NCBI GenBank assembly: GCA_030446465.1
Contig: JAUJNI010000002.1
Span: 444,963-508,962, forward strand
DNA from: Actinomycetota bacterium
Lineage (GTDB): Bacteria > Actinomycetota > CADDZG01 > WHSQ01
DNA length: 64,000 nt
Direction of reading: 5' to 3'
Numbering within the stretch: the first letter of the stretch is position 1; every line of letters begins with the position of its first letter. Position numbers and translations under genes: made by a program. The notes beneath the pieces are model-generated. The model was not told the origin of the DNA. It saw only the letters and a program-made list of their open reading frames with translations, and searched no databases. Below are positions 24,410 through 48,266 of this stretch, one piece after another.

Positions 24410-24624
24410 GCGGCCTCCCGACTCGTAAACACATAACTCTAGGGCCTCGGCCGGGAGACTCAGCCGTAAAGGTTCGCCGCCGCGGCCTGTGGCGCTCGCT
24501 TAAACGCAGGATTTGATGTCCACGGGGAGGTTTTGCGCCACTTAGGTGGAATTTATGAGTAGATTGCGTGTTGTCGCACAGGCGACGGTGAGGTGTCAGG
24601 GACAAGCGGGGATTGACTCAGTTC

Positions 24625-24630
24625 AGGAGG
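24625..24630 (+). promoter_or_regulatory. Ribosome binding site fixing the subtilase start
   Basis: AGGAGG, eight bases before ATG 24639, decides for this start over the earlier in-frame ATG at 24546. Confidence 0.75.
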
Positions 24631-24638
24631 GGCGGCAG

Positions 24639-27600
24639 ATGACCTACGGCAGCTGGCGGACGACGTTCGAGGGACGACGGTTCAAGAACACGAGGACCGG
24701 CTTGGCCGTGGCGCTTGCCTTGGCCCTGATCGCGGTTCTGCTGCCCCTGCTTTCGTCGGCCCGCTCGAACACCGCACAAGCTCAGCAGACGTCCGCAAGC
24801 TCGAACCCGGCCCCCGGGCCTGCAAGCATCGATCCCGCCCTCGAACGGCAGTTCGAGAAGGACCCCTCGGGTGAAGTCGAGGCGGTGGTCACTGCGTGGA
24901 CCCGCGGCGGGCTCGACCAGATAGAGCAGCTCGGCGTGACGGGCGTACGCCTGAAAGTGCTGCCGATGATCCTGACCGACAGCCTCACTCGGGACCAGCT
25001 CGAGAGCCTCAGCCGCTCGGCGGCGGTGCGCAGCGTCTTTGCGAACCGCGAGGAGCGGCTGCTCATGGAGGACACCACCTGGCTCGTGAGGGCGCGTTAT
25101 GCCTGGCAGGCCGCCGACAAGGGAGGCTTGGGGGTCACCGGCGAAGGAGTGGAGCTCGCGGTGATCGACACCGGAGGCGACGGCTCCCACGAGGACATGG
25201 ACAACCTGATTGAGTTCTGTCAGGCGGCGGAATCGATCGCCTCCACCCACGAGACCGTGCGGTGCTCGCCTTTCCGCCCCGAATCGGAGAACGCCGGACC
25301 GGCCGGCGCCACCAACACCGCTCGGGGGGATTCCGAGGACGACAACGGGCACGGGACGCACGTATCGGGCACCATGGCCGGCACCGCTGACGCGAGCGGG
25401 GGACGCGACGCCAACCACAGCACGATCGGCATCTCGCCCGACGCCAAGCTGCGCGTCTACTCCGCCAACGCCGGCGGCTCTCTGTTCCTGTTCCAGATCG
25501 TCTCCTCCTTCGACGACCTGACCTTCAAGAAGATCAACGGGTTAAACGACGTCATGGCCGTGAACAACAGCTATGGAGGCGGTACCGGCGCCAACTACAA
25601 CCCGGACGACCCGATCAACGTTGCGGTCAACAGGGCGTACGACGCCGGCATCTTGAGCGTCTTCGCCGCCGGCAACTCGGGGCCCGAGCACAACACGCTG
25701 TCGCGCCAGTGCGTCAACCCCTTCGTGGTGTGCGTGGCCGCATCGACCAAGCCTGACTCCGTGGTGATGTTCTCCTCGCGCGGCCGTCCGAGTGAGCCCG
25801 CCGACACCAACCGCGATGGCGTCGTGGGCGGTCCGGGTGACGTCGCCCCGGGCAATCACGACCGCGAGCTGGGCCAGAGGCTCGGGCTTGGCCTGTACCG
25901 GCCGACGATGACGGCGCCGGGCGTGAACATCAACTCGCTCAGGGCCAACACCGCCGCCGGCAACCTCCCGACCTGTGTCGAGGGGAGCCCCGTGCAGACC
26001 AATTGCTACGTCGCGTTCAACGGCACCTCTATGGCAACTCCGCACGTCGCCGGATCCGTTGGCCTGATCGTCCAGGCCTACCGCGACGCTCACGGTGAGT
26101 CGCCGACCCCGGCGATCATCACCGACATCCTCGAGCGCTCCGCCAACCTCTACAAGCTGCCCGGTTACGAGGCCGAGGAGCAGGGGGCCGGCCGGCTCGA
26201 CGTCTATGCCGCCGCGCAGTACGCCAAGACCTACCCCGAGGGGCTCCCGAAGCCGAACCTCGGCACGCCGTCGCCTCCATATGCCGCCAACCAGTACCCG
26301 GGCGCGGAGGCGACCAAGGCGGGCAGCCAAAAGGGCTGCACCGGCGCCTTCAGCTTCGTCGCGGAAAGCGACCCCGGGACCGACGAACAGGCCGATCAAC
26401 CCCCCGAGGAGACGGGCAGGTTCGGCTCCCACACGATTGACGTGCCGGAGAAGACAGAACGCCTGAGGATCACGGTCAGGTGGCCCGACCACCCGAGCGC
26501 CAACCTCTACGCGCGCCTGTGGCGGCCGGGTGTCAACCCCGACGACACCGCGAAGTCTGGACCCGGGCGTGCTTTCCCCGACCAGGAGGCGGTCGGCCTC
26601 GTGTTCGTCGGCACGCAGAGGTTCCTCGACGTGCGATCTCCCGAGGCGGGGGAGTGGAGGCTGCGCGTCTACCACCGCGCCGGCGGGCAACCGTTGCCAT
26701 GCGATCCCGAGGCCACCGGCGACGGTGACAACGGGGTGGGCTACAACTACAACGTGGACGTCGAGCTGCCGCAGGTCGCCGTCACCCCGGCCGTTGCCAT
26801 CACCGAGCCCGCCGCAGGCGCGACGACAGAGGGTCGCTTCGTGCGGATCGCGGGCAGCGCCTCGTACCCGGAGCGATGGGACGGCGTGACCAACTGGGAG
26901 GTAGCCGGCTCGGGCACCCCCTCGACCGGCCCCGAGGGGCCGGACACCAGGCAGGTCCTGCACTTCCAGGGCAACACCGAGGAGGGCTGCACCGGCGACG
27001 GCCGGACCGACATCGTGGCCTGCAACGGCCCCTTCCTGCTCGACAAGAAGGAGCTGTCGGATAATGAGCCGGCATCGTGGAAAGTGCCCAACCCGCTGAG
27101 CATCGGCACCGGCGCGCGCAACGTCTTCGACCCCAACTGGGTATGGACCCCAGGCGCCAAGACGACGGTGTCGGGACCGATGACCGTGGAGTGGCGGGCG
27201 TCCTGCGGGGCTTGCTCCAGGTCCATCGGGTTCAGCGCCGACTGGAACATACGGCTGTGGGCGGACGGCACGAAGGTGGTGGAGCAGCGTGTGACCGCCA
27301 CTCCCGCCGCACCGAACGTCCCCGAGAAGCTCACCGCGACGGTCAACGTGCCCGAGACGACCGCCGAGAAGACGTTCGTGCTCCACGTCGACCCGGTCTT
27401 TATCGACTCGCAGAACAACACGCTCATCTACTACGACTCGAAGCAGCCGTGTTCTCCTGCGGCGGCCGCCGACGCCTGCGACTCCCTCGTGCGGATGCCC
27501 GTTGTGACCGCCGGCGGAGGAACCAGCACGGCCCCCCAGACGCCCGCCAACCTGCGCATCACCGACGTGCACGAAGGCCTGAGGGTGGCCTGGGACAAGG

Positions 27601-28865
27601 TCGACGGAGCGACGAGCTACCAGATCCACCGCAGCACCACTCCGACCTTCGCACCCGGCGCGGACACCAGGATCGCGACGACGCCGGGGACGGCGTGCGA
27701 CTCTCCCGATGTTCCGAGCTGGCCGCTGCCGTCTGATCCGACCAAGCCCAACGCGAGCCGCAGCGGGCTCTGCTACACCGACGACTTGGTCACCACCCTG
27801 ACCACCTATTACTACCGGGTCGTTGCCGTCAGCGACGCGGGCAGCAGCGACGCCTCGCAGCTCGCCTACGGGACGCCGACGCTGTACGACCGCCAGGTCA
27901 AGGTGAAGGTCGACAGGCTCTTCGGCCCCGGCCACTGGGACTACGCGAAGCTCTCCAGCCCGACCGCAAGGAACTGGGAGTACATGTGGGACACGCTCGA
28001 GCTGGCGGCAGGAGCCCGCGACGTCTTCGCCCGTTCCTTCACCCAAGGGATCGGCTCGGCAAAAAGCGGGCTGTCCGCCACGCTGCCGGAGCCGGAGCCG
28101 ACCCCCACCGAGAGCCCAACGCCCGAGCCGACCGACACCGGGTCTCCAACCCCCGAGCCGACCGACACCGGGTCTCCAACGCCCGAGCCGACCGACACGG
28201 GGTCTCCAACGCCCGAGCCCGAGGAGCGGTCCCCTCGCGACATCACCCTCGAGGCGTCCAAGAACCGGGTCGACCACAACAAGAGCTTCCAGCTCAGCGG
28301 CACTATTGACTCGAGAGACGAGTCGGCAGCGCCCCAGTGCACGCAGGGCGTCGAGGTCACGATCAAGCGTGACGTCATCGGCGGCGGCAACCGCTACCGC
28401 CAGTTCGCCGTCACGACCACCGGCGAAGACGGCTCTTACTCGGTCGAGGTCGACGACGCCGACCGCAGCGCCGGATACGTCGCGAGCGTGCGCAGGACTC
28501 CTCGCTGCGCCGCGGCCAACTCCGACGCCGAGTACGTCCTGGTCAAAAAGGTCACCAACATGAGGCTGTCGGACCAAACCGTTACAAGGGGCGAGACCGT
28601 CGAGATCTTCGGCCGCCTGCGGCCCTGCGGTCCTCCAGACGATCCCCGGCGCGACCACGCCGGCGGCGTGATCCATCTCCAGAAGGCGTCAAACGGAACC
28701 TTCGGCAAGGTCGCCAGCAAGCGCACCGACGACGAGTGCCGGGTGGTCTTCAAGCGCGAGGTCAACCGCGAGAGCGTGTTCAGGCTCTCCTCGTCGAAGG
28801 ACGATCCCGATCACCTGCGCGACACCTCGGGTGCGAAGGTCGTCGAGGTCAAAGGCCGCCGCTGA
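24639..28865 (+). CDS. Large secreted subtilisin-family (S8) serine protease
   Basis: A 1408-residue exported protease. A membrane/signal segment lies at about residues 21-40. The S8 catalytic triad is Asp177 (AVIDTGGD), His238 (DDNGHGTHVSG) and Ser464 (FNGTSMATPHVAG), with the oxyanion region NNSYGGGTG and VFAAGNSGP between. A large insertion separates Asp and His. Behind the protease come beta-rich domains, a fibronectin-III-like domain (TPANLRITDVHEGLRVAWD), a Pro/Glu/Thr linker of three 10-residue repeats, and a C-terminal Ig-like region. It probably acts outside the cell or on the surface in protein breakdown or maturation of surface proteins. Confidence 0.9.
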   Translation: MTYGSWRTTFEGRRFKNTRTGLAVALALALIAVLLPLLSSARSNTAQAQQTSASSNPAPGPASIDPALERQFEKDPSGEVEAVVTAWTRGGLDQIEQLGVTGVRLKVLPMILTDSLTRDQLESLSRSAAVRSVFANREERLLMEDTTWLVRARYAWQAADKGGLGVTGEGVELAVIDTGGDGSHEDMDNLIEFCQAAESIASTHETVRCSPFRPESENAGPAGATNTARGDSEDDNGHGTHVSGTMAGTADASGGRDANHSTIGISPDAKLRVYSANAGGSLFLFQIVSSFDDLTFKKINGLNDVMAVNNSYGGGTGANYNPDDPINVAVNRAYDAGILSVFAAGNSGPEHNTLSRQCVNPFVVCVAASTKPDSVVMFSSRGRPSEPADTNRDGVVGGPGDVAPGNHDRELGQRLGLGLYRPTMTAPGVNINSLRANTAAGNLPTCVEGSPVQTNCYVAFNGTSMATPHVAGSVGLIVQAYRDAHGESPTPAIITDILERSANLYKLPGYEAEEQGAGRLDVYAAAQYAKTYPEGLPKPNLGTPSPPYAANQYPGAEATKAGSQKGCTGAFSFVAESDPGTDEQADQPPEETGRFGSHTIDVPEKTERLRITVRWPDHPSANLYARLWRPGVNPDDTAKSGPGRAFPDQEAVGLVFVGTQRFLDVRSPEAGEWRLRVYHRAGGQPLPCDPEATGDGDNGVGYNYNVDVELPQVAVTPAVAITEPAAGATTEGRFVRIAGSASYPERWDGVTNWEVAGSGTPSTGPEGPDTRQVLHFQGNTEEGCTGDGRTDIVACNGPFLLDKKELSDNEPASWKVPNPLSIGTGARNVFDPNWVWTPGAKTTVSGPMTVEWRASCGACSRSIGFSADWNIRLWADGTKVVEQRVTATPAAPNVPEKLTATVNVPETTAEKTFVLHVDPVFIDSQNNTLIYYDSKQPCSPAAAADACDSLVRMPVVTAGGGTSTAPQTPANLRITDVHEGLRVAWDKVDGATSYQIHRSTTPTFAPGADTRIATTPGTACDSPDVPSWPLPSDPTKPNASRSGLCYTDDLVTTLTTYYYRVVAVSDAGSSDASQLAYGTPTLYDRQVKVKVDRLFGPGHWDYAKLSSPTARNWEYMWDTLELAAGARDVFARSFTQGIGSAKSGLSATLPEPEPTPTESPTPEPTDTGSPTPEPTDTGSPTPEPTDTGSPTPEPEERSPRDITLEASKNRVDHNKSFQLSGTIDSRDESAAPQCTQGVEVTIKRDVIGGGNRYRQFAVTTTGEDGSYSVEVDDADRSAGYVASVRRTPRCAAANSDAEYVLVKKVTNMRLSDQTVTRGETVEIFGRLRPCGPPDDPRRDHAGGVIHLQKASNGTFGKVASKRTDDECRVVFKREVNRESVFRLSSSKDDPDHLRDTSGAKVVEVKGRR
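28121..28210 (+). repeat. Three 30-bp in-frame tandem repeats
   Basis: Units at 28121-28150, 28151-28180 and 28181-28210 differ by one base or two each and encode PEPTDTGSPT-type spacers in the subtilase; a diverged copy precedes and a 9-base part follows. Confidence 0.9.
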
Positions 28866-38239: not shown

Positions 38240-38891
38240 CTAAGAGGCCGAGTCCGATGAGCCGGGGTGGCCAAGAGACTGCATGGCGCTCTTGAGGGCG
38301 TCGACCTCCCGCTGAAGCTCGTCCACTCTCTTCTTCAGCTCCCCGACCTCACGGCCCGCCCTGTACACGGTGCCGTCCTTGAGGTCGCGGGCCAGGATCG
38401 CGTTGGCGCCGATGAAGCAACCCGCCCCGACATGGATGGGGCCAAGAACCCTTGGCCCCCGCTGCGATCTTCGTGTCGTCGCCTATCTCGGGGAAGCCGT
38501 CGACGATGTCCTCCTCGAAGAACCCTCGTGACGACCCCCCAGGGGTTACCCCGTGAAGCAGCGTGACGTTGGAGCCGATGCGGACCCCCTTGCCGATCAC
38601 CAGCCCGGAGGTATGGGTCACGCGCAGGCCCCCGCCTATCTCGGCCCCCGGATGCATGTCCGCCCCCGTCAGGAAGTAGTTGATCCTCCAGATCAGCTCT
38701 GCCGGCGTCTCGAGGCCCCGCTCCCACAAGGAGTGCGACACCCTGTAGAGCAGGATCGCCAGGGGGCCGGGCCGGGTCACCAGGCGCTGCACGACCTTCA
38801 GCGGGGAGGGCTTGCCCTCGTGCGTGCCCTTGGCGGAAAGAAGCCGGGCGAGGTCGCCGCGAAGGCCCTTAGGTGATGAAGTCACGACCAT
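38240..38891 (-). pseudogene. cysE: Serine O-acetyltransferase-like hexapeptide protein, one frame break near 38450
   Basis: A left-handed beta-helix acyltransferase. From 38891 it reads WRINYFLTGADMHPGAEIGG, THTSGLVIGKGVRIG and LLHGVTPGGSSRG, the SAT hexapeptide core. At CCC 38449-38451 one base is extra; beyond it, in the corrected frame, come GPIHVGAGCFIGANAILARD and a C-terminal coiled coil (ELKKRVDELQREVDALKSAM). The repaired protein has 216 residues, shorter at the N-terminus than E. coli CysE. It makes O-acetylserine if a true SAT; a sugar-modifying role is the alternative, given murJ and sulfotransferase next to it. Confidence 0.8.
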
Positions 38892-39131: not shown

Positions 39132-40718
39132 ATGTTTGCTCAGCGCGTGCGTCTCCTGCTTGCCCATCTCCTGCTGGCATGTTTGACAAGCAGTATCCTG
39201 GTTGTCGCAAACACAGCGAGCCGAGCGCACGCTCAGACCTCGAGCTCAGTTCAGCAAAGCGCAACGCGCGATGAGGTCGAGTCGGAGCGGACCAAGTACG
39301 CCAAGGTCTATGCCGAGCCGGACGGGACCAAGACGACCAACATCTACACCGCGCCCATTCACTTCAAGGCGGCCGACGGAACCTGGAAAGAGATCGACGA
39401 CACCCTCATGCCGCAGCCAGACGGCAGCGGCTACGAGAACACAGCGGGGGCGCTCGATGTCGAGTTTGCCGACTCCGGCGATCAGCCATCGCTCATTCAG
39501 GTAACCGACGCGTCAACGAGCGTCCGCTTTGGGCTCCAGGGAGCGCAGGGAAGCACGGCAACCGTAGAGGGCAACGAGATAACCTATGTCGACATCTACC
39601 CGGGTGTCGACCTCGTCTTCCAGGTGCATGGCGAGCAAGTCAAAGAACTCCTCGTCCTCAAGCAGCGCCCGCAGGTCCCCGCAGGGCGCATGACCTTCCG
39701 TTTCCCATTGACCACAAGGGGACTCACCGCAGAGCGCACCAGCGACGGTGTGATCAAGCTCGTCGACTCCTCCGGCAAGACCGCCTTCACCATTCCCAAG
39801 CTCTATATGTACGATTCCTACTCCAACGCTCAGGCGCGCGAGCCGGCGTTGAGTGAAGACATCGACATCACGATCGAGCAGTCGGGGTCTAACCAGTTAC
39901 TCAAGGTCAGCGCAGACGGCGCGTGGCTCACCGATCCGGCGCGCGTCTACCCCGTGGTGATCGACCCGTCGCTCACCAAGACGCCCAGCCTCGACACCTT
40001 CGTGCAGTCGAACATCGAAAACACGCCCCAGAGCGACTCCGATCAGCTCAAGGCCGGCTACTACACCGGGCCGGACGGGACCTTCACGGCTCGCTCGCTG
40101 CTCCAGTTCGATCTCTCGTCGGTGCCGAGCGGCTCGGAGATCAACTCGGCGAAGCTATCTTTGTACGAGAACCACTCTTACTCGTGCGACCCGCGCCGAG
40201 TCGATGTCTATCGCGTTACGGACAGCTGGGGATCAGGAGTGACGTGGTCCAACAAGCCGAGCTTTGCCGCGGACCCCGCCGACACCCTGAACGTCGCCAA
40301 AGGGTACTCGTCGGCGTGTCCGGGCGGGCGCATCAACTTCGACGTGCGCTCCATCGTCAACTACTGGAAGAACTCCGCAGCGAACAACAATGGCTTTGGA
40401 ATAAGGGCGAGAAACGAGGACGACAAGTATGGGTGGAAGAAGTTCGCCTCTGACCAAGCGACCCACAAGCCGGAGCTGACGGTCAAGTTCGACGAGCCCA
40501 ACAATCCGCCGGGCGTGCCCAACGACCTCTCACCAGCAGACGAACTTTCTCCCCCGATGCGACCCCGGTGCTCAAGGCGCGCTACCGCGACCCGGACGAC
40601 GGCGACCGCGGCCGGGTCAACTTCAAGCTCCTCCAAGCCGGAAATGTGGTCGCGACGCACACCTCGGACATCGAGATCCCGGCACGCTCGTGAGCTGGAC
40701 CACCCCGGCGCTGACTGA
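39132..40718 (+). CDS. RHS/YD-repeat protein, N-terminal part (export signal and DNRLRE domain)
   Basis: This is the first part of one gene that continues, after two frame breaks near 40544 and 40672, to 47040. Residues 1 to about 35 form a signal peptide ending AHAQT. Then comes a domain with KYAKVYAEPDGTKTTNIYTA and ADGTWKEIDDTL, found at the N-terminus of many actinobacterial YD-repeat proteins, and at about residues 287-455 a DNRLRE domain (ARSLLQFDLSSVPSGSEINS; RVTDSWGSGVTWSNKP). From about 40544 the real sense moves to another frame (TFSPDATPVLKARYRDPDD), so the last 55 or so residues of this frame are out-of-frame. Its promoter lies at 38993-39020. Confidence 0.85.
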   Translation: MFAQRVRLLLAHLLLACLTSSILVVANTASRAHAQTSSSVQQSATRDEVESERTKYAKVYAEPDGTKTTNIYTAPIHFKAADGTWKEIDDTLMPQPDGSGYENTAGALDVEFADSGDQPSLIQVTDASTSVRFGLQGAQGSTATVEGNEITYVDIYPGVDLVFQVHGEQVKELLVLKQRPQVPAGRMTFRFPLTTRGLTAERTSDGVIKLVDSSGKTAFTIPKLYMYDSYSNAQAREPALSEDIDITIEQSGSNQLLKVSADGAWLTDPARVYPVVIDPSLTKTPSLDTFVQSNIENTPQSDSDQLKAGYYTGPDGTFTARSLLQFDLSSVPSGSEINSAKLSLYENHSYSCDPRRVDVYRVTDSWGSGVTWSNKPSFAADPADTLNVAKGYSSACPGGRINFDVRSIVNYWKNSAANNNGFGIRARNEDDKYGWKKFASDQATHKPELTVKFDEPNNPPGVPNDLSPADELSPPMRPRCSRRATATRTTATAAGSTSSSSKPEMWSRRTPRTSRSRHARELDHPGAD

Positions 40719-43700
40719 GGGGCTGACGTACAAGTGGCAAGCGCGCAACGACGACGGCGACCTCGTCTCGGATTGGACCGCGCTCCGCTCCTACACCGTC
40801 GACCGGACAAATCCGCCCGCGCCCGACGTCAGTTCGTCCACGCACCCCAATCAGGACACCTGGTACGCCAACAATGACCCCATCGTGAAGTGGTCCGCGT
40901 CGGACTTCTCCGGCATCTCCGGCTACAACTACGCCCTGAACCGGGATCCCGACTACGCACTCGGGGCCACCGTGCGCGACAGCGAGACGCAGATGTCGTG
41001 GACCGATCTGTCCGACGACGAGAGGTGGTTCCACGTACGCGCAAGAGACGGCGCGGGCAATTGGGGCCCGACCTCGCGCTTTCGCATAAGGATCGACGCG
41101 GAGGGCCCGACCCCCGCCATCACCTCGTCGACGCACCCCGATCCAAACAAGTGGTACGCGAGCGACGATCCGAGCTTTTCGTGGGAGGCGTCGGACCTCT
41201 CCGGGGTCTGTGGCTATTCCTACGCGCTCGACCAGAACACGACCACCACAACCGACACCGCATCTGAGGGCACCGCGACAGGGAAGTCATACTCTGATAT
41301 CGGGGAGGGGACCTTTTATTTCCACCTGAGGGCCAAGAACTGCGCCGGGGCCTGGGGACCCACGAGCCACTTCAAGATCCAGATCGACAGCTATGGCCCC
41401 GCCACCACGGTGAGCTCCTCGACCCACCCCGACTCCACCAAGTGGTACAGCGGTGACGACCCGAGCCTGTCGTGGTTCGCGAGCGCCAACTCTGGTATCT
41501 CCGGCTACTCCCACACGCTGGACAAGAACACCTCGACGACGCCCGACGACACATCAGAGGGAACCGGGACGACGAAGTCGTTCACCGACATCGGCGAGGG
41601 AACCTCCTACTTCCACATCAAGGCCAGAAATGGGGCAGGAGTATGGGGGAAGGTCGCCCACTTTGCGCTCAACGTCGACCACACCGCGCCGGCCGCACCT
41701 GCGGTGGTGGCCAGCACGTCGCATGTTCGGACCGTTGCGATGCGAGACAACACCATCGAGGTGACCTGGACCGAAGGGAGCGATGACCGCTCGGGCGTGA
41801 AGGAGTACTGGTGGGCGTTCAGGCGCGAGGGCGCTAACGGCGACAAGGGCGCAGCGCCGGACGGCTCCTTCAAGAGCCCTCCTGGTGACAGAACGGCGGA
41901 GTCCGCCGCGCTCGACGACGGCAGGTACTGGTTCCACGTCGTCACGGTCGACAACGCCGGCAACGTCAGCGACGACAAGACCTACGGGCCCTTCGTGGTG
42001 GACCAGAACGGCTCGCCGGTCCCGCTGACGCCGACGCTCGACCAGCTCCTCGTCGCCCAGTCGGACACCAACGGGATGGAGCAGTTCTACCCGTACTCGT
42101 CGCACTCGCTTGGGACCGCCACCGGCTACGTCAACCTCCACTCGGGCAACCTCGTGGTCAAGCAGCCTGACGTCACCGTCCCCGCCCAGGGCCTCAACGC
42201 GGCGATCACCCACAGCTACAACTCACACCGAAGCGACAGGAGCTACCACGACACCGGTGTCGGGAGGGGCTGGACGCTGTCGTTGTCTGACGCAGACGGC
42301 GGCCTCGATTTCGCAGGCTCGGTCATGGACATCGACCTCAACTCGCCGGTGGTCCCGGCAACCGCAGAGGTGGTCGACGCGGCCGCGGGCGCAAGCGGCA
42401 AGGTCCTGGAGTTGACCGACGGAGACGGGACCGTGCACCGCTTCATCAGAAAGGGCGACCCAGGGAGCCGGTGGGAGTCACCGCCTGGGGTTGACCTGAA
42501 GGTCCGCGAGGAGATCGACCAGACGACTGGACTTGCCACGAGCTACCAGCTCACCCGCCCCGACGGGGTCGTCTACGTGGTTGACCAACCCGAGGAGTTC
42601 CGCACCAACGGAACCGACTCACCCGCGACGCCGTGGCACGTCGTCGCCATAAAGGATCGCAAGGGCAACGAGCTAGATCTCAACTACTTGCGACTCAGCG
42701 AGGTGAACTCCCTCCACAAGGTCAGGGTCTCGGAGCTGCGACACAAGCGAGGCAATGAGCTGCTGGTCAAGTTCTACTGGGACGCCTCGGGCAACCTCAC
42801 CCGCATGGAGTCGCTGCCGGGCTCTCAGGCCCCCGACCCGGCGACCGGCCAGGTGCGCTCCTATGCACGCCAGGTGAGCTTCGACATCGATCCCGAGACG
42901 AGGCTGCTGCGGGCGGTCACGACCAACAGCCAGCTTGCCGACGGGGGCAACGATCGGCAGAGGACGACCTACGCCTACAACGAGAACGGCGAGCTCAACG
43001 CGGGCCTCGATCAAGGCGCCAGCGTGCTGACGAGCGTGACCGACGCCAGAGGAAACGTCAGTCGCCTCGGCTATTCGGAGACGACCGGCACCCCTCGGGT
43101 GACCAAGATCAAGGACCGCGACGCGAAGCTGTGGGGCTACGACTACCGCCCGGCCGACCCCAATACGGGCGAACGCACCACCGTCGCAACCACCCCGGGC
43201 CCGTCCGGCGCGACCAGCTACCGCATCTCTGGGCGCAAGCAGATAAGCGACTCGGACAAGCGCACGGCGGGAGGCAACATCCTTCGGATCACCGACGCGG
43301 GCAACGACTCCGGGGCGGTCACCAAGACCTACGAGTGGAAAGAGAACCACCTCATCGCCAAGACCGACGGCGTGGGCAACACCACGAGGATGGAGTACAA
43401 CGACCTCGGGCTCGTCACCAAGCTGACGACACCGGCCCCCAACGACCCTCAGAGATCCGACCTCCACCCGGAGGCGCCCATCGGCCCGATCGTCACGACC
43501 CTCGACTACCGTTTCCCCGCCGACTACCGCTACGACACCGACAAGTGCTCCGACCCGACTAGCACGTCGGGGCCGGTATCTAAGGACGGCTGGTGCTACA
43601 CGGTCGCAGAGCTGATCAAAACCACCAGGGCTTCCAACCTCTCGGCTCACAGCAGGGTCACGGACTTCTCCTACGACGAGGAGGGAAACCTCTCCACGAT

Positions 43701-46700
43701 CGTCGAGCGGGGCAAAAATCAGGCCGATCGCACCACGAGCTTCGGCTACTACAACTACGGTGCCCTCAAGAGGGTCGACGGGCCGAGAACCGACGTGACC
43801 GACGTCACGCTGTTCGGCAACACCTCAGACGCCGACTACGGCGGCTATCACCGCTCCGGGCAGCCACAAAGGATCGAGGACGCCTACGGCAAGGCGATAA
43901 ACGTCGCCTACAACCCCTATGGGGCCACCGGCAAGCTCACCGACCGGGCGGGGCGGGTCACCACGACCCGCTACGACGAGCTCGACCGGCCGATCGAGGA
44001 GAAGGACCCCGCCGGCGACGCCACTACCTATGCCTACGACCCCAACGGCAACAAAGCGTCGGAGACCTCGCCGCGCGGCAACGCGACTGCCACGGCGGGC
44101 GACTTCGTGACCCGCTATGGCTACGACCCCAATGACAGGATGATCGAGATCTCCGAGCCGGGCGCTACCGAGTCCTCCCCGCGCCGGATCAGCACCACCG
44201 CCTACAATCCCGACGGGACCAAGAGGTCAGAGACGACTCCCGCAGATGCCACCACGACCTACGCCTATTACCCCAACCAGCAGCTCAAGCAGACCAGAGC
44301 GCCGGCTGGCGCGGGAGAGACCGCGGTCACCGACTACTCCTATGACGCCGCGGGCCGCACCACCAAGATCACCCTGCCCGAAGCCAACGCGTCCGGCGCC
44401 CGCCCGGTCAAGACCGCGACCTATACGCCGGCTGGGGTGGAGAGCACGATGACCGAGACCTCGGCGTCGGGGGCTGCGGACCGGTCGAGCAAGGCCTCCT
44501 ACAACGCCCACGGCGAGCTGTTGGAGCTGCTTGGGCCGAGAAAGAAGGACGGCGTGTGGGCGTCCCAGCGCCAGAGCTACGACGCTTTCGGGCAGATAAG
44601 GCTCATCAGCACGCGGGCCGGCGACTCGAAGTGGCTCGACTACTCCTATGACTACGACCTCGCCGGCAACAAAGTTGCGGTGACGCAGCCGACCGGCGAT
44701 GGCGACAAGCTGACGGCGACCTACAGCTACGACAAGCTCAACCGCCTTGCGGCCCAGACCAAGGACCCGACCAACCCGGGCCACACGGTGACCTACAGCT
44801 ACCTGCCCGAGGGCCAGCAGGAGACGAGGGTCGACCTCCACGACGGCAGCCCCAAGCGGACCGTGCGCCACAGCTACAACCTCGACTACACCGAGCGCTC
44901 GGCGATCGCGATCGACAACTCAAGGGCCGGCGGCCCCACGGTTGCGAGCTGCAACTGGGCGGCCGGAGCAGATCCTTCTTCAGGCTACGACCCGGACGGC
45001 AACCTTCTGGTCACCAGAACCGTGATCGGGAGCTCGGGCTGCGACTCGGGTGACACGGTGCGCACGAGGAGGTTTACTTACGATCATCGCGGCTTCACCG
45101 ACGAGGTCACCCAGACGATCGATTTACCCGACGCCGACCCGGTTACGAGAAAGCAAAGGCTCACCTACCGGGCCGACGGCGTGCTGAGTTCGTCGACGTG
45201 GGACGGCAAGACGACGACCTACAAGCACTCTGCCGCCGGCCTGATGGAGTCGGCGACCGACTGGCGGGCGGGCTCGGCGGCGTCGACCTTTGACTACCTC
45301 CCATCCGGCTCGCTTGAGGACATCTCCTTTCCCGGAGCGGCCGACGCAAGGTTCAGCTACCACCGGGACGGGAGCCTGTCGTCGTTCTTGTGGCACAAAT
45401 CATCGGGCGGGCTCATCCGCTCTCACAGCGGGATCGACTACGACCTCGGCGGCCTGCTGACCTCCGAGACGGTCGACATCACCCGGCCGGCGGACTCACC
45501 TGGCGACAATGGCGGAGCGGCAAACTTCGACTACGACTTGGCCGGGCGCTTGGTGAGCTGGACCTCGCCGTTCCGGCTGCTGAAGGACGAGGCCTCAACC
45601 GACAACCCCGTCACGACCTACGGCCTCGACGACGCCGGCAACATCACCTCGGAGACGGTCACGATCGACGGCGCGACCAAGAAGACGACCACCGCCAGCT
45701 TCAGTCACAACCGCCTGAGCAGCCGCACGGTCAAGACCTTCGGGCTCGTCCAGGGAGTGGACGACACCACGAGCGAGCAAGACTTCCACTACTCGGGCCT
45801 CGGCGAGGAGATCAAGCGCAGCGCGACGACGACCACAACGACGCCTAACGTCCTGCCGGCTACCGATACCACCGTCACTTCCTACGACCCCGGTGGCAGG
45901 ACCGACCAGGTGGATAACCGGGGCGACACGCTAAAGACCGACATCGACTACCTCTACGACGCCTCGGGTCAGGTCATCGCCCGCACCGCCCAGCCCGAGG
46001 CAGGCGATCCCAAGACGAGGCTCTACTTCTACTTCGGGACCACGAGCCAACTCGCCGAGGAGACGTCCAAGTCCGGCACCACCAAGACCCGCTACTTCAG
46101 CTCATCAGACGGGCAGCCCCTCGCGGAGCAGCGCTACAAGGACGGCCTCACCGGTGAGCCCGATCAGAGCAACTCGAGCTGGGTGTGGCTGCTGCGCGAC
46201 TCCCGGGGCAACGTCGCGACCGAGCTCAAGGACGACGGCACCATCGCGTCCCAGAGAGCCTACGACCCGTACGGGGCACCCGACGAGGGCGGGACTGCGA
46301 CGGCCACAGGAGAAGAGGAGTCGACCCTCGGCTTCAAGGCGGCCCAGACCGACGACGTCTCGGGCAACCTCCTGCTGGGCCCGCGGATCTACGATCCAAC
46401 GACCGACCGCTTCACCACCGCCGACGTCTTTGTCGGTTCTGGCTCGGACATGGCGCTCGGCACGGATCCCTTGACTGGCAACCGCTATCTCTTCGCCGCC
46501 GCCAACCCGGTGGCCTTCTACGACGACGGCCATAGCCCAGCGATGTGTGACGGCACCGCGTACTGCAACCAACGTTACGATCGCGATAAGAAAGATGATG
46601 AGAAAGGCAAGAAAGACAACCGAGAGCAGCGGTCAGAATGGGAATCTGGGTTTGACGAGATGAATACTGGGTGGCTCGATCTCACCGGGGCAGGGGAGGC

Positions 46701-47040
46701 GTCTGCGGCGATTTCAGAAGGACGCCGGGTCTGGACGTGTGCGGATGAAGTGACATGCGTTGAGAACGCGGGTGAATCCGTGCCTGGGGATTTCGAGGCA
46801 ATAACGTTGGGACACTTCATCCTCTTCAGAGACGAGTTTAACCGTCAAGAAGACAAGTGCCTATTGGCTCACGAGGTAGTCCACGTCCGTCAGTACGAAC
46901 GAGACCCTGACTTTGTAGACAATTACATTTATGGGTTCCTGAAAGGTCTCGAGGAGTTCGGGAACGAACGCGTAGCGTATCGCTTACACCCGTACGAACA
47001 AGAGGCGTTAAGGGCTGAGGCACAGTGTGAAGCTGGCTGA
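40690..47040 (+). CDS. RHS/YD-repeat protein, main part with zinc-protease-like tip (putative polymorphic toxin)
   Basis: A 2116-residue continuation of the gene that starts at 39132; the GTG at 40690 is only where the frame opens. In order: three Ig-like repeats (THPNQDTWYANNDP, THPDPNKWYASDDP and THPDSTKWYSGDDP, about 40830-41670), a linker, YD repeats such as YDELDRPIEEKDPAGD over about 42600-46100, the RHS core LRDSRGNVATELKDDG..YDPYGAPDEGG..GPRIYDPTTDRFTTADV, and NRYLFAAANPVAFYDDGHSP. The last about 165 residues are a different module with AHEVVHVRQYERDP (HExxH) and a downstream HPYEQEALRAEAQ, as in zinc peptidases. The shell normally encloses a toxin; target unknown. Confidence 0.87.
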   Translation: MSWTTPALTEGLTYKWQARNDDGDLVSDWTALRSYTVDRTNPPAPDVSSSTHPNQDTWYANNDPIVKWSASDFSGISGYNYALNRDPDYALGATVRDSETQMSWTDLSDDERWFHVRARDGAGNWGPTSRFRIRIDAEGPTPAITSSTHPDPNKWYASDDPSFSWEASDLSGVCGYSYALDQNTTTTTDTASEGTATGKSYSDIGEGTFYFHLRAKNCAGAWGPTSHFKIQIDSYGPATTVSSSTHPDSTKWYSGDDPSLSWFASANSGISGYSHTLDKNTSTTPDDTSEGTGTTKSFTDIGEGTSYFHIKARNGAGVWGKVAHFALNVDHTAPAAPAVVASTSHVRTVAMRDNTIEVTWTEGSDDRSGVKEYWWAFRREGANGDKGAAPDGSFKSPPGDRTAESAALDDGRYWFHVVTVDNAGNVSDDKTYGPFVVDQNGSPVPLTPTLDQLLVAQSDTNGMEQFYPYSSHSLGTATGYVNLHSGNLVVKQPDVTVPAQGLNAAITHSYNSHRSDRSYHDTGVGRGWTLSLSDADGGLDFAGSVMDIDLNSPVVPATAEVVDAAAGASGKVLELTDGDGTVHRFIRKGDPGSRWESPPGVDLKVREEIDQTTGLATSYQLTRPDGVVYVVDQPEEFRTNGTDSPATPWHVVAIKDRKGNELDLNYLRLSEVNSLHKVRVSELRHKRGNELLVKFYWDASGNLTRMESLPGSQAPDPATGQVRSYARQVSFDIDPETRLLRAVTTNSQLADGGNDRQRTTYAYNENGELNAGLDQGASVLTSVTDARGNVSRLGYSETTGTPRVTKIKDRDAKLWGYDYRPADPNTGERTTVATTPGPSGATSYRISGRKQISDSDKRTAGGNILRITDAGNDSGAVTKTYEWKENHLIAKTDGVGNTTRMEYNDLGLVTKLTTPAPNDPQRSDLHPEAPIGPIVTTLDYRFPADYRYDTDKCSDPTSTSGPVSKDGWCYTVAELIKTTRASNLSAHSRVTDFSYDEEGNLSTIVERGKNQADRTTSFGYYNYGALKRVDGPRTDVTDVTLFGNTSDADYGGYHRSGQPQRIEDAYGKAINVAYNPYGATGKLTDRAGRVTTTRYDELDRPIEEKDPAGDATTYAYDPNGNKASETSPRGNATATAGDFVTRYGYDPNDRMIEISEPGATESSPRRISTTAYNPDGTKRSETTPADATTTYAYYPNQQLKQTRAPAGAGETAVTDYSYDAAGRTTKITLPEANASGARPVKTATYTPAGVESTMTETSASGAADRSSKASYNAHGELLELLGPRKKDGVWASQRQSYDAFGQIRLISTRAGDSKWLDYSYDYDLAGNKVAVTQPTGDGDKLTATYSYDKLNRLAAQTKDPTNPGHTVTYSYLPEGQQETRVDLHDGSPKRTVRHSYNLDYTERSAIAIDNSRAGGPTVASCNWAAGADPSSGYDPDGNLLVTRTVIGSSGCDSGDTVRTRRFTYDHRGFTDEVTQTIDLPDADPVTRKQRLTYRADGVLSSSTWDGKTTTYKHSAAGLMESATDWRAGSAASTFDYLPSGSLEDISFPGAADARFSYHRDGSLSSFLWHKSSGGLIRSHSGIDYDLGGLLTSETVDITRPADSPGDNGGAANFDYDLAGRLVSWTSPFRLLKDEASTDNPVTTYGLDDAGNITSETVTIDGATKKTTTASFSHNRLSSRTVKTFGLVQGVDDTTSEQDFHYSGLGEEIKRSATTTTTTPNVLPATDTTVTSYDPGGRTDQVDNRGDTLKTDIDYLYDASGQVIARTAQPEAGDPKTRLYFYFGTTSQLAEETSKSGTTKTRYFSSSDGQPLAEQRYKDGLTGEPDQSNSSWVWLLRDSRGNVATELKDDGTIASQRAYDPYGAPDEGGTATATGEEESTLGFKAAQTDDVSGNLLLGPRIYDPTTDRFTTADVFVGSGSDMALGTDPLTGNRYLFAAANPVAFYDDGHSPAMCDGTAYCNQRYDRDKKDDEKGKKDNREQRSEWESGFDEMNTGWLDLTGAGEASAAISEGRRVWTCADEVTCVENAGESVPGDFEAITLGHFILFRDEFNRQEDKCLLAHEVVHVRQYERDPDFVDNYIYGFLKGLEEFGNERVAYRLHPYEQEALRAEAQCEAG

Positions 47041-47383
47041 TGCCTCACACAGCGTTTCCAAGATGCTCGTCATCTCGACGCTCGCCGCCATGACAACGGC
47101 CGTCGCAGCGTCATGCGTCCCATCGTATGACGCGACTTTTATCAACCCATGCCAGCACACGCTTAAAGTCAGCACTTTTCGAGTACCTCCAAGAGAAGCA
47201 CGTCCCCACTTGGCGCAACGCCGGGTCTCTATCCCCCCAGAATCGCAACGGCAGGTGGACGGCGCCTTTTCAGGCAGCGTCCATACTTGGTCAATTACTG
47301 TAGGCGACGCTCCACCGATCGCCGTTCAAAATGCTCCAATCAACGGGTCAGTAACTATTCGGATTCCAGAACGTTTTTGCTAG
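47027..47383 (+). CDS. Small lipoprotein-like protein, candidate immunity gene
   Basis: A 118-residue protein whose GTG start overlaps the RHS stop by 14 bases. The N-terminal half reads MLVISTLAAMTTAVAAS then C (from ATG 47063), a signal sequence with a Cys in lipobox-like position. The rest is beta-rich (VDGAFSGSVHTWSITVGDAP) with no family I recognise. Direct overlap with a toxin-like gene is the usual place of an immunity gene, so that role is proposed by position only. Base composition is much less G+C rich than the window average. Confidence 0.6.
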   Translation: MKLADASHSVSKMLVISTLAAMTTAVAASCVPSYDATFINPCQHTLKVSTFRVPPREARPHLAQRRVSIPPESQRQVDGAFSGSVHTWSITVGDAPPIAVQNAPINGSVTIRIPERFC

Positions 47384-47642: not shown

Positions 47643-48266
47643 ATGCTTGCTTACCGCATACTTGCTCTGATTGTTTCCGCTTCCCTGGGGCTCGCCGCGT
47701 CTTGTGGACCAGCTGCAAAATCGGACTCCAACGCCGGGGAGCGAGCAAGTGGGCATCAATCGTCCGCAGCTATCCGCACGCCCAGCGATCTTTCACCATC
47801 GGTGAGAGTCTTCATGAACCAACTACAAAATGCTGGAGCATCCGTCGCGGAAGCGGAATGCATTTCGAACCGTTTTTTCTCGCGGAGCGCGATGAGAGAC
47901 GAATATTCAGATCGCACGAACACCGCAACGGCTTTGGGTCGTGCGAAGATGCTTGGAGCCGTACTTGAAGAAACCGCTGAAGGATGCGCGCCGGTGCACC
48001 GACTCAATCAATTGGCGTACGGGATAATGGTCCGTCCTCTCCTGGATAGGCTCCGTCGGGCAGGAGCCACGAAAGCGGAGGGGCGATGCATTCTTAGGCT
48101 GGTCGAGGACGTAGAGCTGATCTTCTCGTCGCAAGCCCGTCACGGCGACGAGGCTCAACGCACGGCGGCGCATCATCTGGTACGCCGAGGTGCGAAATGT
48201 GGGTCGAAAACCAGACTGCGAGAGATCGTGAGACAATTGCACGCCTCGTTTAAATCAGGTAGGTAG
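47643..48266 (+). CDS. Putative lipoprotein with two internal repeats
   Basis: About 207 residues. MLAYRILALIVSASLGLAAS then C is a lipoprotein-type signal. The mature part has two similar halves: VRVFMNQLQNAGASVAEAEC and VRPLLDRLRRAGATKAEGRC, each with an AGA..AE..CI pattern and a helical context, so the protein grew by duplication. No family recognised. A longer start (ATG 47601) is possible. It is the second small gene behind the RHS tip and shares its lower G+C. Confidence 0.6.
   Translation: MLAYRILALIVSASLGLAASCGPAAKSDSNAGERASGHQSSAAIRTPSDLSPSVRVFMNQLQNAGASVAEAECISNRFFSRSAMRDEYSDRTNTATALGRAKMLGAVLEETAEGCAPVHRLNQLAYGIMVRPLLDRLRRAGATKAEGRCILRLVEDVELIFSSQARHGDEAQRTAAHHLVRRGAKCGSKTRLREIVRQLHASFKSGR

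What the first reader, a model, noticed from the sequence alone, without database searches (positions are those of the whole stretch)
46540..47040. Zinc-protease-like C-terminal tip on a giant RHS protein
The sequence shows a secreted YD-repeat shell, the RHS core ending NPVAFYDDGHSP, and then a new 165-residue module with HEVVHVRQYERDP and a downstream HPYEQEALRAEAQ. RHS/YD shells commonly enclose toxins released after the core. A peptidase-like HExxH tip is a plausible toxin of this class; its target is not predictable. This is the best candidate in the window for a poorly described system.
Basis: partly seen in the sequence, partly recalled or inferred. Interest (0 to 1): 0.75.

Follow-up and report, generated by a model that had tools for sequence, protein, structure and literature searches.

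The report
RHS toxin with zinc-protease tip
A giant secreted bacterial protein of a known weapon family (RHS polymorphic toxins) ends in a swapped-in module that looks like a working zinc protease, probably used to harm competing bacteria, so it is a credible new member of an already described kind of toxin and not a new system.

Summary
The last 168 residues of the RHS ORF (46534-47040, +) form a separate module with HEVVH (46870-46884) and a conserved downstream Glu (46996-46998). An alignment-based AlphaFold2 model is confident (pLDDT 90-97) over the last ~100 residues and has a zincin-like layout. H, E, H, Q and the downstream E are invariant in 77 homologues, nearly all small stand-alone proteins of Actinomycetota and Planctomycetota. 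Pfam eCIS_core (DUF4157) matches above its cut-off, but only over half the profile.
Evidence for a polymorphic-toxin tip: third-position GC drops from 0.88 in the shell to 0.59 at the junction. Sister shells (55% identical) in a related genome end at the same NPVAFxDDGH junction with different tips. A related tip sits on a different RHS shell in the same genome. A small lipoprotein-like ORF follows each of the two protease tips and is a candidate immunity protein.
RHS proteins with zinc-peptidase tips, including DUF4157-type ones, were described in 2012, and one metallopeptidase effector with periplasmic immunity is proven antibacterial. This is therefore a new member of a known kind; toxicity, target and immunity here are inferred. 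The RHS reading frame is interrupted upstream (about 40550-40680), possibly by assembly error.

The parts
39132..40550 (+). N-terminal part: signal peptide (MFAQRVRLLLAHLLLACLTSSILVVANTASRAHAQ) and DNRLRE/CBM96 domain; Sec export predicted
   Evidence: CBM96 E 4.2e-20; DNRLRE_dom E 6e-36; signal peptide read from the sequence
40550..40680 (+). Reading frame interrupted between the N-terminal part and the shell (real or assembly error)
   Evidence: codon-position GC moves from one frame to the other
40690..46533 (+). YD/RHS shell, GC3 0.877
46261..46533 (+). RHS-associated core ending in NPVAFYDDGH, the junction conserved in sister shells
46534..47040 (+). Tip: 168-aa C-terminal module, GC3 0.589, 6 Cys
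46729..47037 (+). Zincin-like domain (model residues 61-163, pLDDT mostly above 90): four strands, then HExxH helix and three further helices
46870..46884 (+). HEVVH: predicted zinc ligands (two His) and catalytic Glu
46996..46998 (+). Glu in HPYEQEA, predicted third zinc ligand; invariant in 77 homologues
47063..47383 (+). Candidate immunity gene: 106-aa lipoprotein-like protein (signal peptide, AAS-C lipobox), orphan
47643..48266 (+). Second lipoprotein-like ORF (LAAS-C lipobox); role unknown, less likely immunity

Best explanation
This is an RHS polymorphic toxin of an actinomycete. It is probably exported by the Sec pathway (signal peptide) and carried in a YD-repeat shell. Its C-terminal 168 residues are an exchangeable cassette encoding a small zincin metallopeptidase (HExxH + Glu). 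After release at the core/tip junction, which retains the Asp expected of the RHS autoprotease, the tip would cleave proteins at the outer face of the membrane or cell envelope of a competing bacterium. The producer would be protected by the small lipoprotein encoded immediately downstream (47063-47383). Shown: the module, its motif, the conserved site, the predicted fold, the cassette-like composition break, different tips on sister shells, and a related tip on another shell. Inferred: zinc binding, proteolysis, release, toxicity, target compartment, and immunity.
For: Conserved zincin site: H108, E109, H112, Q115, E150 invariant in 77 sequences. AF2 pLDDT >90 over about 100 residues with strand-strand-HExxH helix-helix topology. 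eCIS_core above gathering score. Rhs core and RHS repeats. Cassette signature: GC3 of shell pieces 0.815-0.929 (178 pieces) vs 0.589 in the tip; tip GC is among the lowest 0.3% of 504-nt windows. Tip polymorphism: two G006 shells 55% identical (E 7.9e-97) end at the same NPVAFDDDGH and carry unrelated tips. Tip sharing: a second RHS protein in the same genome, with a different core, carries a related tip (46% over 63 aa, E 2e-14). The genome has several further Rhs cores with other tips. A lipoprotein-like ORF directly follows both protease tips. The tip has 6 Cys in 168 aa vs 6 in 1948 in the shell, as expected of a disulfide-bearing extracytoplasmic domain. No contractile-sheath gene in the genome, consistent with Sec/RHS export and not eCIS. 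Literature: PMC3482391 (PVC-metallopeptidase as RHS toxin tip); PMC6899460 (metallopeptidase effector with periplasmic or lipoprotein immunity); PMC8636562 (RHS shell, autocleavage, composition break of tips).
Against: No experiment. Foldseek against the PDB gave no significant match (best E 0.6, to the IrrE/PprI and BlaR1 zinc proteases). The reading frame is interrupted upstream, so the gene may be inactive, although a neighbouring serine acetyltransferase gene also loses its frame (profile matched only to position 127 of 162), which suggests assembly indels. The immunity candidate is an orphan with an uncertain fold, and small ORFs occur by chance in GC-rich DNA. Most homologues of the tip are stand-alone, presumably non-toxic proteins. 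The core end is DDGH, not the canonical DPxGL.
Confidence: 0.68

Rival explanations
1. The tip is a releasing or maturation peptidase, not the toxin: like DUF4157 in eCIS effectors it processes the RHS protein itself, and the shell or another protein does the harm.
For: Most PVC-metallopeptidases are thought to be releasing peptidases located N-terminal to the toxin (PMC3482391, PMC8213781). The tip passes the eCIS_core cut-off.
Against: The tip is the very C-terminus, so nothing downstream is left to release. It occupies exactly the toxin position of sister shells that carry other tips. Zhang et al. assign C-terminal versions to toxins.
Confidence: 0.13
2. A non-toxic cell-surface RHS protein whose tip is a surface protease used for nutrition, wall turnover or self-processing.
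For: The N-terminal carbohydrate-binding-like DNRLRE/CBM96 domain and the widespread stand-alone homologues are compatible with housekeeping envelope roles.
Against: Composition break, tip swapping on related shells, several RHS cores per genome, and an adjacent tip-specific lipoprotein.
Confidence: 0.12
3. A decayed pseudogene or an orphan tip on a broken RHS gene.
For: Frame interruption at about 40550-40680.
Against: The remaining 2116 codons are open with strong GC3 periodicity. The catalytic site is intact. A neighbouring conserved gene also loses its frame, pointing to assembly indels.
Confidence: 0.07

Closest known systems
RHS polymorphic toxins with PVC-metallopeptidase (DUF4157/eCIS_core) C-terminal domain (Zhang et al. 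2012, PMC3482391; example from Pedosphaera parvula)
   Same: RHS repeats followed by a C-terminal HExxHxxQ...E zincin in the toxin position.
   Different: Here the domain matches only the second half of eCIS_core (positions 39-77 of 79, 26 bits, vs 80-120 bits over the whole profile for typical members in the same phylum). Its closest relatives are stand-alone proteins of actinomycetes and planctomycetes.
Tox-MPTase1-5 tips of RHS proteins (PMC3482391)
   Same: Small zincin tips on RHS shells.
   Different: Relationship not testable here: no such models were available under those names, and none was reported in the Pfam or NCBIfam scans.
VgrG2b C-terminal / Tpe1-Tpi1 metallopeptidase effector-immunity pairs (PMC6899460)
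   Same: HExxH metallopeptidase, often annotated DUF4157, acting outside the cytoplasm, with an envelope-located or lipoprotein immunity protein encoded next door.
   Different: Carrier is a T6SS VgrG spike in Gram-negative bacteria; here it is a Sec-exported RHS shell in an actinomycete. No detectable sequence match to a solved structure.
Stand-alone HELVHVRQ proteins of Actinomycetota/Planctomycetota (e.g. L003 in the same genome)
   Same: Same AIT[LF]GH...HELVHVRQ...Y...E..A core and invariant residues.
   Different: Alone, about 120-190 aa, one copy in most genomes of the family; no shell, no Cys-rich N-terminal extension; short branches vs the long branches of the RHS tips.

Membership tests
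RHS/YD polymorphic toxin | YD repeats and RHS-associated core before a variable C-terminal domain | tested here: met
RHS/YD polymorphic toxin | Same shell with different tips (polymorphism) and composition break at the junction | tested here: met
RHS/YD polymorphic toxin | Adjacent cognate immunity gene | tested here: inconclusive
   Small lipoprotein-like ORF directly downstream of both protease tips; window one is an orphan, function unproven
RHS/YD polymorphic toxin | Core ends PxxxxDPxGL with autoprotease Asp | tested here: inconclusive
   PVAFYDDGH: Asp kept, DPxGL replaced; the same kind of variant (DGH, or DNGY) is in all sister cores compared
RHS/YD polymorphic toxin | Toxic activity of the tip | not testable with these tools
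   needs expression
Zincin metallopeptidase (gluzincin-like) | HExxH plus downstream Glu, conserved | tested here: met
   H108, E109, H112, E150 invariant in 77
Zincin metallopeptidase (gluzincin-like) | Zincin fold | tested here: inconclusive
   Confident model with the expected order of strands and helices; no significant PDB match, weak top hits include zinc proteases
eCIS_core / DUF4157 (PVC-metallopeptidase) | Match over the curated score | tested here: met
   26.4 vs 22 bits
eCIS_core / DUF4157 (PVC-metallopeptidase) | Match over the whole domain | tested here: not met
   Positions 39-77 of 79 only; typical members match 1-78
eCIS effector | Contractile injection particle in the genome | tested here: not met
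   No Phage_sheath_1 in the genome (95.7% complete)
Tpe1-Tpi1 / VgrG2b pair | T6SS carrier and homologous immunity protein | not tested
   The toxin's sequence was not fetched; the carrier here is a Sec-exported RHS shell

The most novel reading that the evidence does not exclude
The two RHS tips found an undescribed toxin family, separate from DUF4157 and Tox-MPTase1-5. It would have been captured from a widespread stand-alone actinobacterial/planctomycete zincin, would act on exported proteins outside the membrane, and would be countered by tip-specific lipoproteins in bacteria without an outer membrane.
Probability: 0.25. Interest if true: 0.5.

Novelty: new member of a known kind. Interest (0 to 1): 0.36.

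Why it matters
It adds a protease tip to the arsenal of soil-type actinomycete RHS proteins and proposes two testable toxin/lipoprotein pairs. The close tie between the tip and a widespread, uncharacterised stand-alone zincin family suggests where such tips come from and offers a route to that family's function. It also shows that Pfam eCIS_core matches outside contractile-particle loci need care.

Tried and rejected
Plain sequence search against the PDB: no match (one chance hit at E 0.1). Foldseek against the PDB: nothing significant. Search for further RHS-borne copies: none among 397 genomes of the phylum, and no RHS fusion among the eCIS_core loci read, 29 of the 30 fetched (some long-frame matches gave no locus). 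Loci from the GTDB contig scan were all stand-alone. Viral contigs, phages and plasmids gave no relative. Contractile injection as carrier: rejected, no sheath gene. Homologues of the lipoprotein: none credible (weak scores, several with stops in the frame). Its fold from a single sequence: low confidence (pLDDT 54). Tree of the tips: two long branches meet with low support, so a common origin of the two tips is neither shown nor excluded. Identifying the other tips by Pfam failed. Protein 1 was typed with a wrong first few residues; it was redone from DNA references and one search is not used for it.

Full report
What is there. The ORF 40690-47040 (+, 2116 aa) is an RHS protein: Pfam RHS_repeat E 1.4e-31 with eight stretches and NCBIfam Rhs_assc_core E 1.4e-8. 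Its core ends ...DPLTGNRYLFAAANPVAFYDDGH at 46533. The remaining 168 residues (46534-47040) are a different module holding HEVVHVRQ (46870 onward) and HPYEQEA. HExxH occurs once in the whole ORF. In shuffles of the tip it appears in 0.9% of cases, and HExxHxxQ in 0.04%, so the motif alone is weak-to-moderate evidence. What carries the case is conservation. In an alignment of 77 homologues the two His, the Glu, the Gln, two Tyr, the downstream Glu (46996-46998) and an Ala are invariant, among ten invariant columns in all.

Fold. AlphaFold2 with that alignment gives pLDDT above 90 for about 95 residues (residues 61-163 of the piece folded): four short strands, the HExxH helix (103-118), then three helices with the conserved Glu at the start of the last. 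That is the layout expected of a small zincin. Foldseek against the PDB found nothing significant. The weak top hits include the zinc proteases PprI/IrrE and BlaR1 (E 0.6-2). The fold is therefore likely, not proven.

Family. Pfam eCIS_core (DUF4157) matches above its curated score (26.4 vs 22 bits), but only profile positions 39-77 of 79. Typical members in the same phylum score 80-120 bits over the whole profile. The nearest relatives are stand-alone proteins of about 120-190 aa in Actinomycetota and Planctomycetota, and 55 of the 77 aligned members match eCIS_core at E 0.01 or better. The same genome holds one stand-alone copy (L003). The signature HExxHxxQ...E is the one Zhang et al. gave for the PVC-metallopeptidase (PMC3482391).

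Is it a toxin tip? Four lines point that way. (a) Composition: third-position GC is 0.815-0.929 in 178 pieces of the shell and 0.589 in the tip, and tip GC is among the lowest 0.3% of windows. This is the cassette signature reported for RHS tips (PMC8636562). (b) Polymorphism: two RHS genes in a genome of the same family have shells 55% identical to this one, run to the same NPVAFDDDGH junction, and then carry unrelated tips. (c) Tip sharing: a second RHS protein in the same genome (end of contig 6, L002/L155), with a different core sequence (...NPVSFVELDGH), carries a tip related to this one (46% over 63 aa, E 2e-14), including a CAxxVTCV cysteine pair not seen in the aligned stand-alone proteins. 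(d) Neighbours: the window tip is followed 25 nt after its last codon by a 106-aa lipoprotein-like ORF (47063-47383), and the second tip by a lipoprotein-like ORF with a clear LSAC lipobox. Across 15 RHS tails in this and related genomes, 14 have an ORF of 60 aa or more starting within -47 to +90 nt of the end of the RHS frame, many with a signal or transmembrane segment. Chance ORFs are common in GC-rich DNA, so this last line is suggestive only.

Proposed mechanism. Sec export (signal peptide at 39132, read from the sequence), carriage inside or on a YD shell, release at the core junction (Asp retained, but the canonical DPxGL replaced by DGH or a close variant, as in all sister cores compared), and proteolysis of proteins at or outside the target's membrane. 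The tip's six cysteines (vs six in 1948 shell residues) and the lipoprotein nature of the candidate immunity proteins favour an extracytoplasmic site, as in the VgrG2b/Tpe1-Tpi1 pairs (PMC6899460). There is no contractile sheath in the genome, so eCIS delivery is unlikely. Shown: module, site, predicted fold, cassette features. Inferred: zinc, cleavage, release, toxicity, target, immunity.

Caveats. The signal-peptide/DNRLRE part (39132-~40550) and the shell are in different frames. The serine O-acetyltransferase gene at 38349-38891 also loses its frame, which suggests assembly indels, but a real break cannot be excluded. The immunity candidate has no credible homologue and no confident fold. 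The tree cannot say whether the two tips share one origin.

Known or new. RHS proteins with zincin tips, including DUF4157-type tips, are described (PMC3482391). The present case is a new member of that kind, with a tip close to an uncharacterised stand-alone family and rare among the genomes searched: only the own genome among 397 of the phylum.

Noticed in passing
window 40550-40680: The RHS gene changes reading frame between its signal-peptide/DNRLRE part and the shell.
   Followed up: partly
window 38349-38891 (-): A serine O-acetyltransferase gene (cysE) loses its frame near its 3' end (profile matched only to position 127 of 162), suggesting base-calling indels in this assembly.
   Followed up: partly
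L155 (G000 contig 6, 1030000-1046104), L155:11132-16103 (-): Two RHS tails in a row: one with a related zinc-protease tip and a lipoprotein gene, then one with another tip and a soluble 105-aa ORF; the first runs off the contig end.
   Followed up: partly
L156:10294-11958 (-) (G000 contig 1): RHS tip with CGTHDYGYDLI, by eye like a bacterial phospholipase A2; no Pfam match.
   Followed up: partly
L003:1360-1725 (+) and loci L005-L020: A stand-alone zincin-like protein (HELVHVRQ) occurs once in most genomes of the family; its function is unknown.
   Followed up: partly
window 24546-28865 (+) and 25542-28676 (-): Two very long overlapping ORFs on opposite strands (1439 and 1044 aa); only one can be the usual coding strand.
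   Followed up: no
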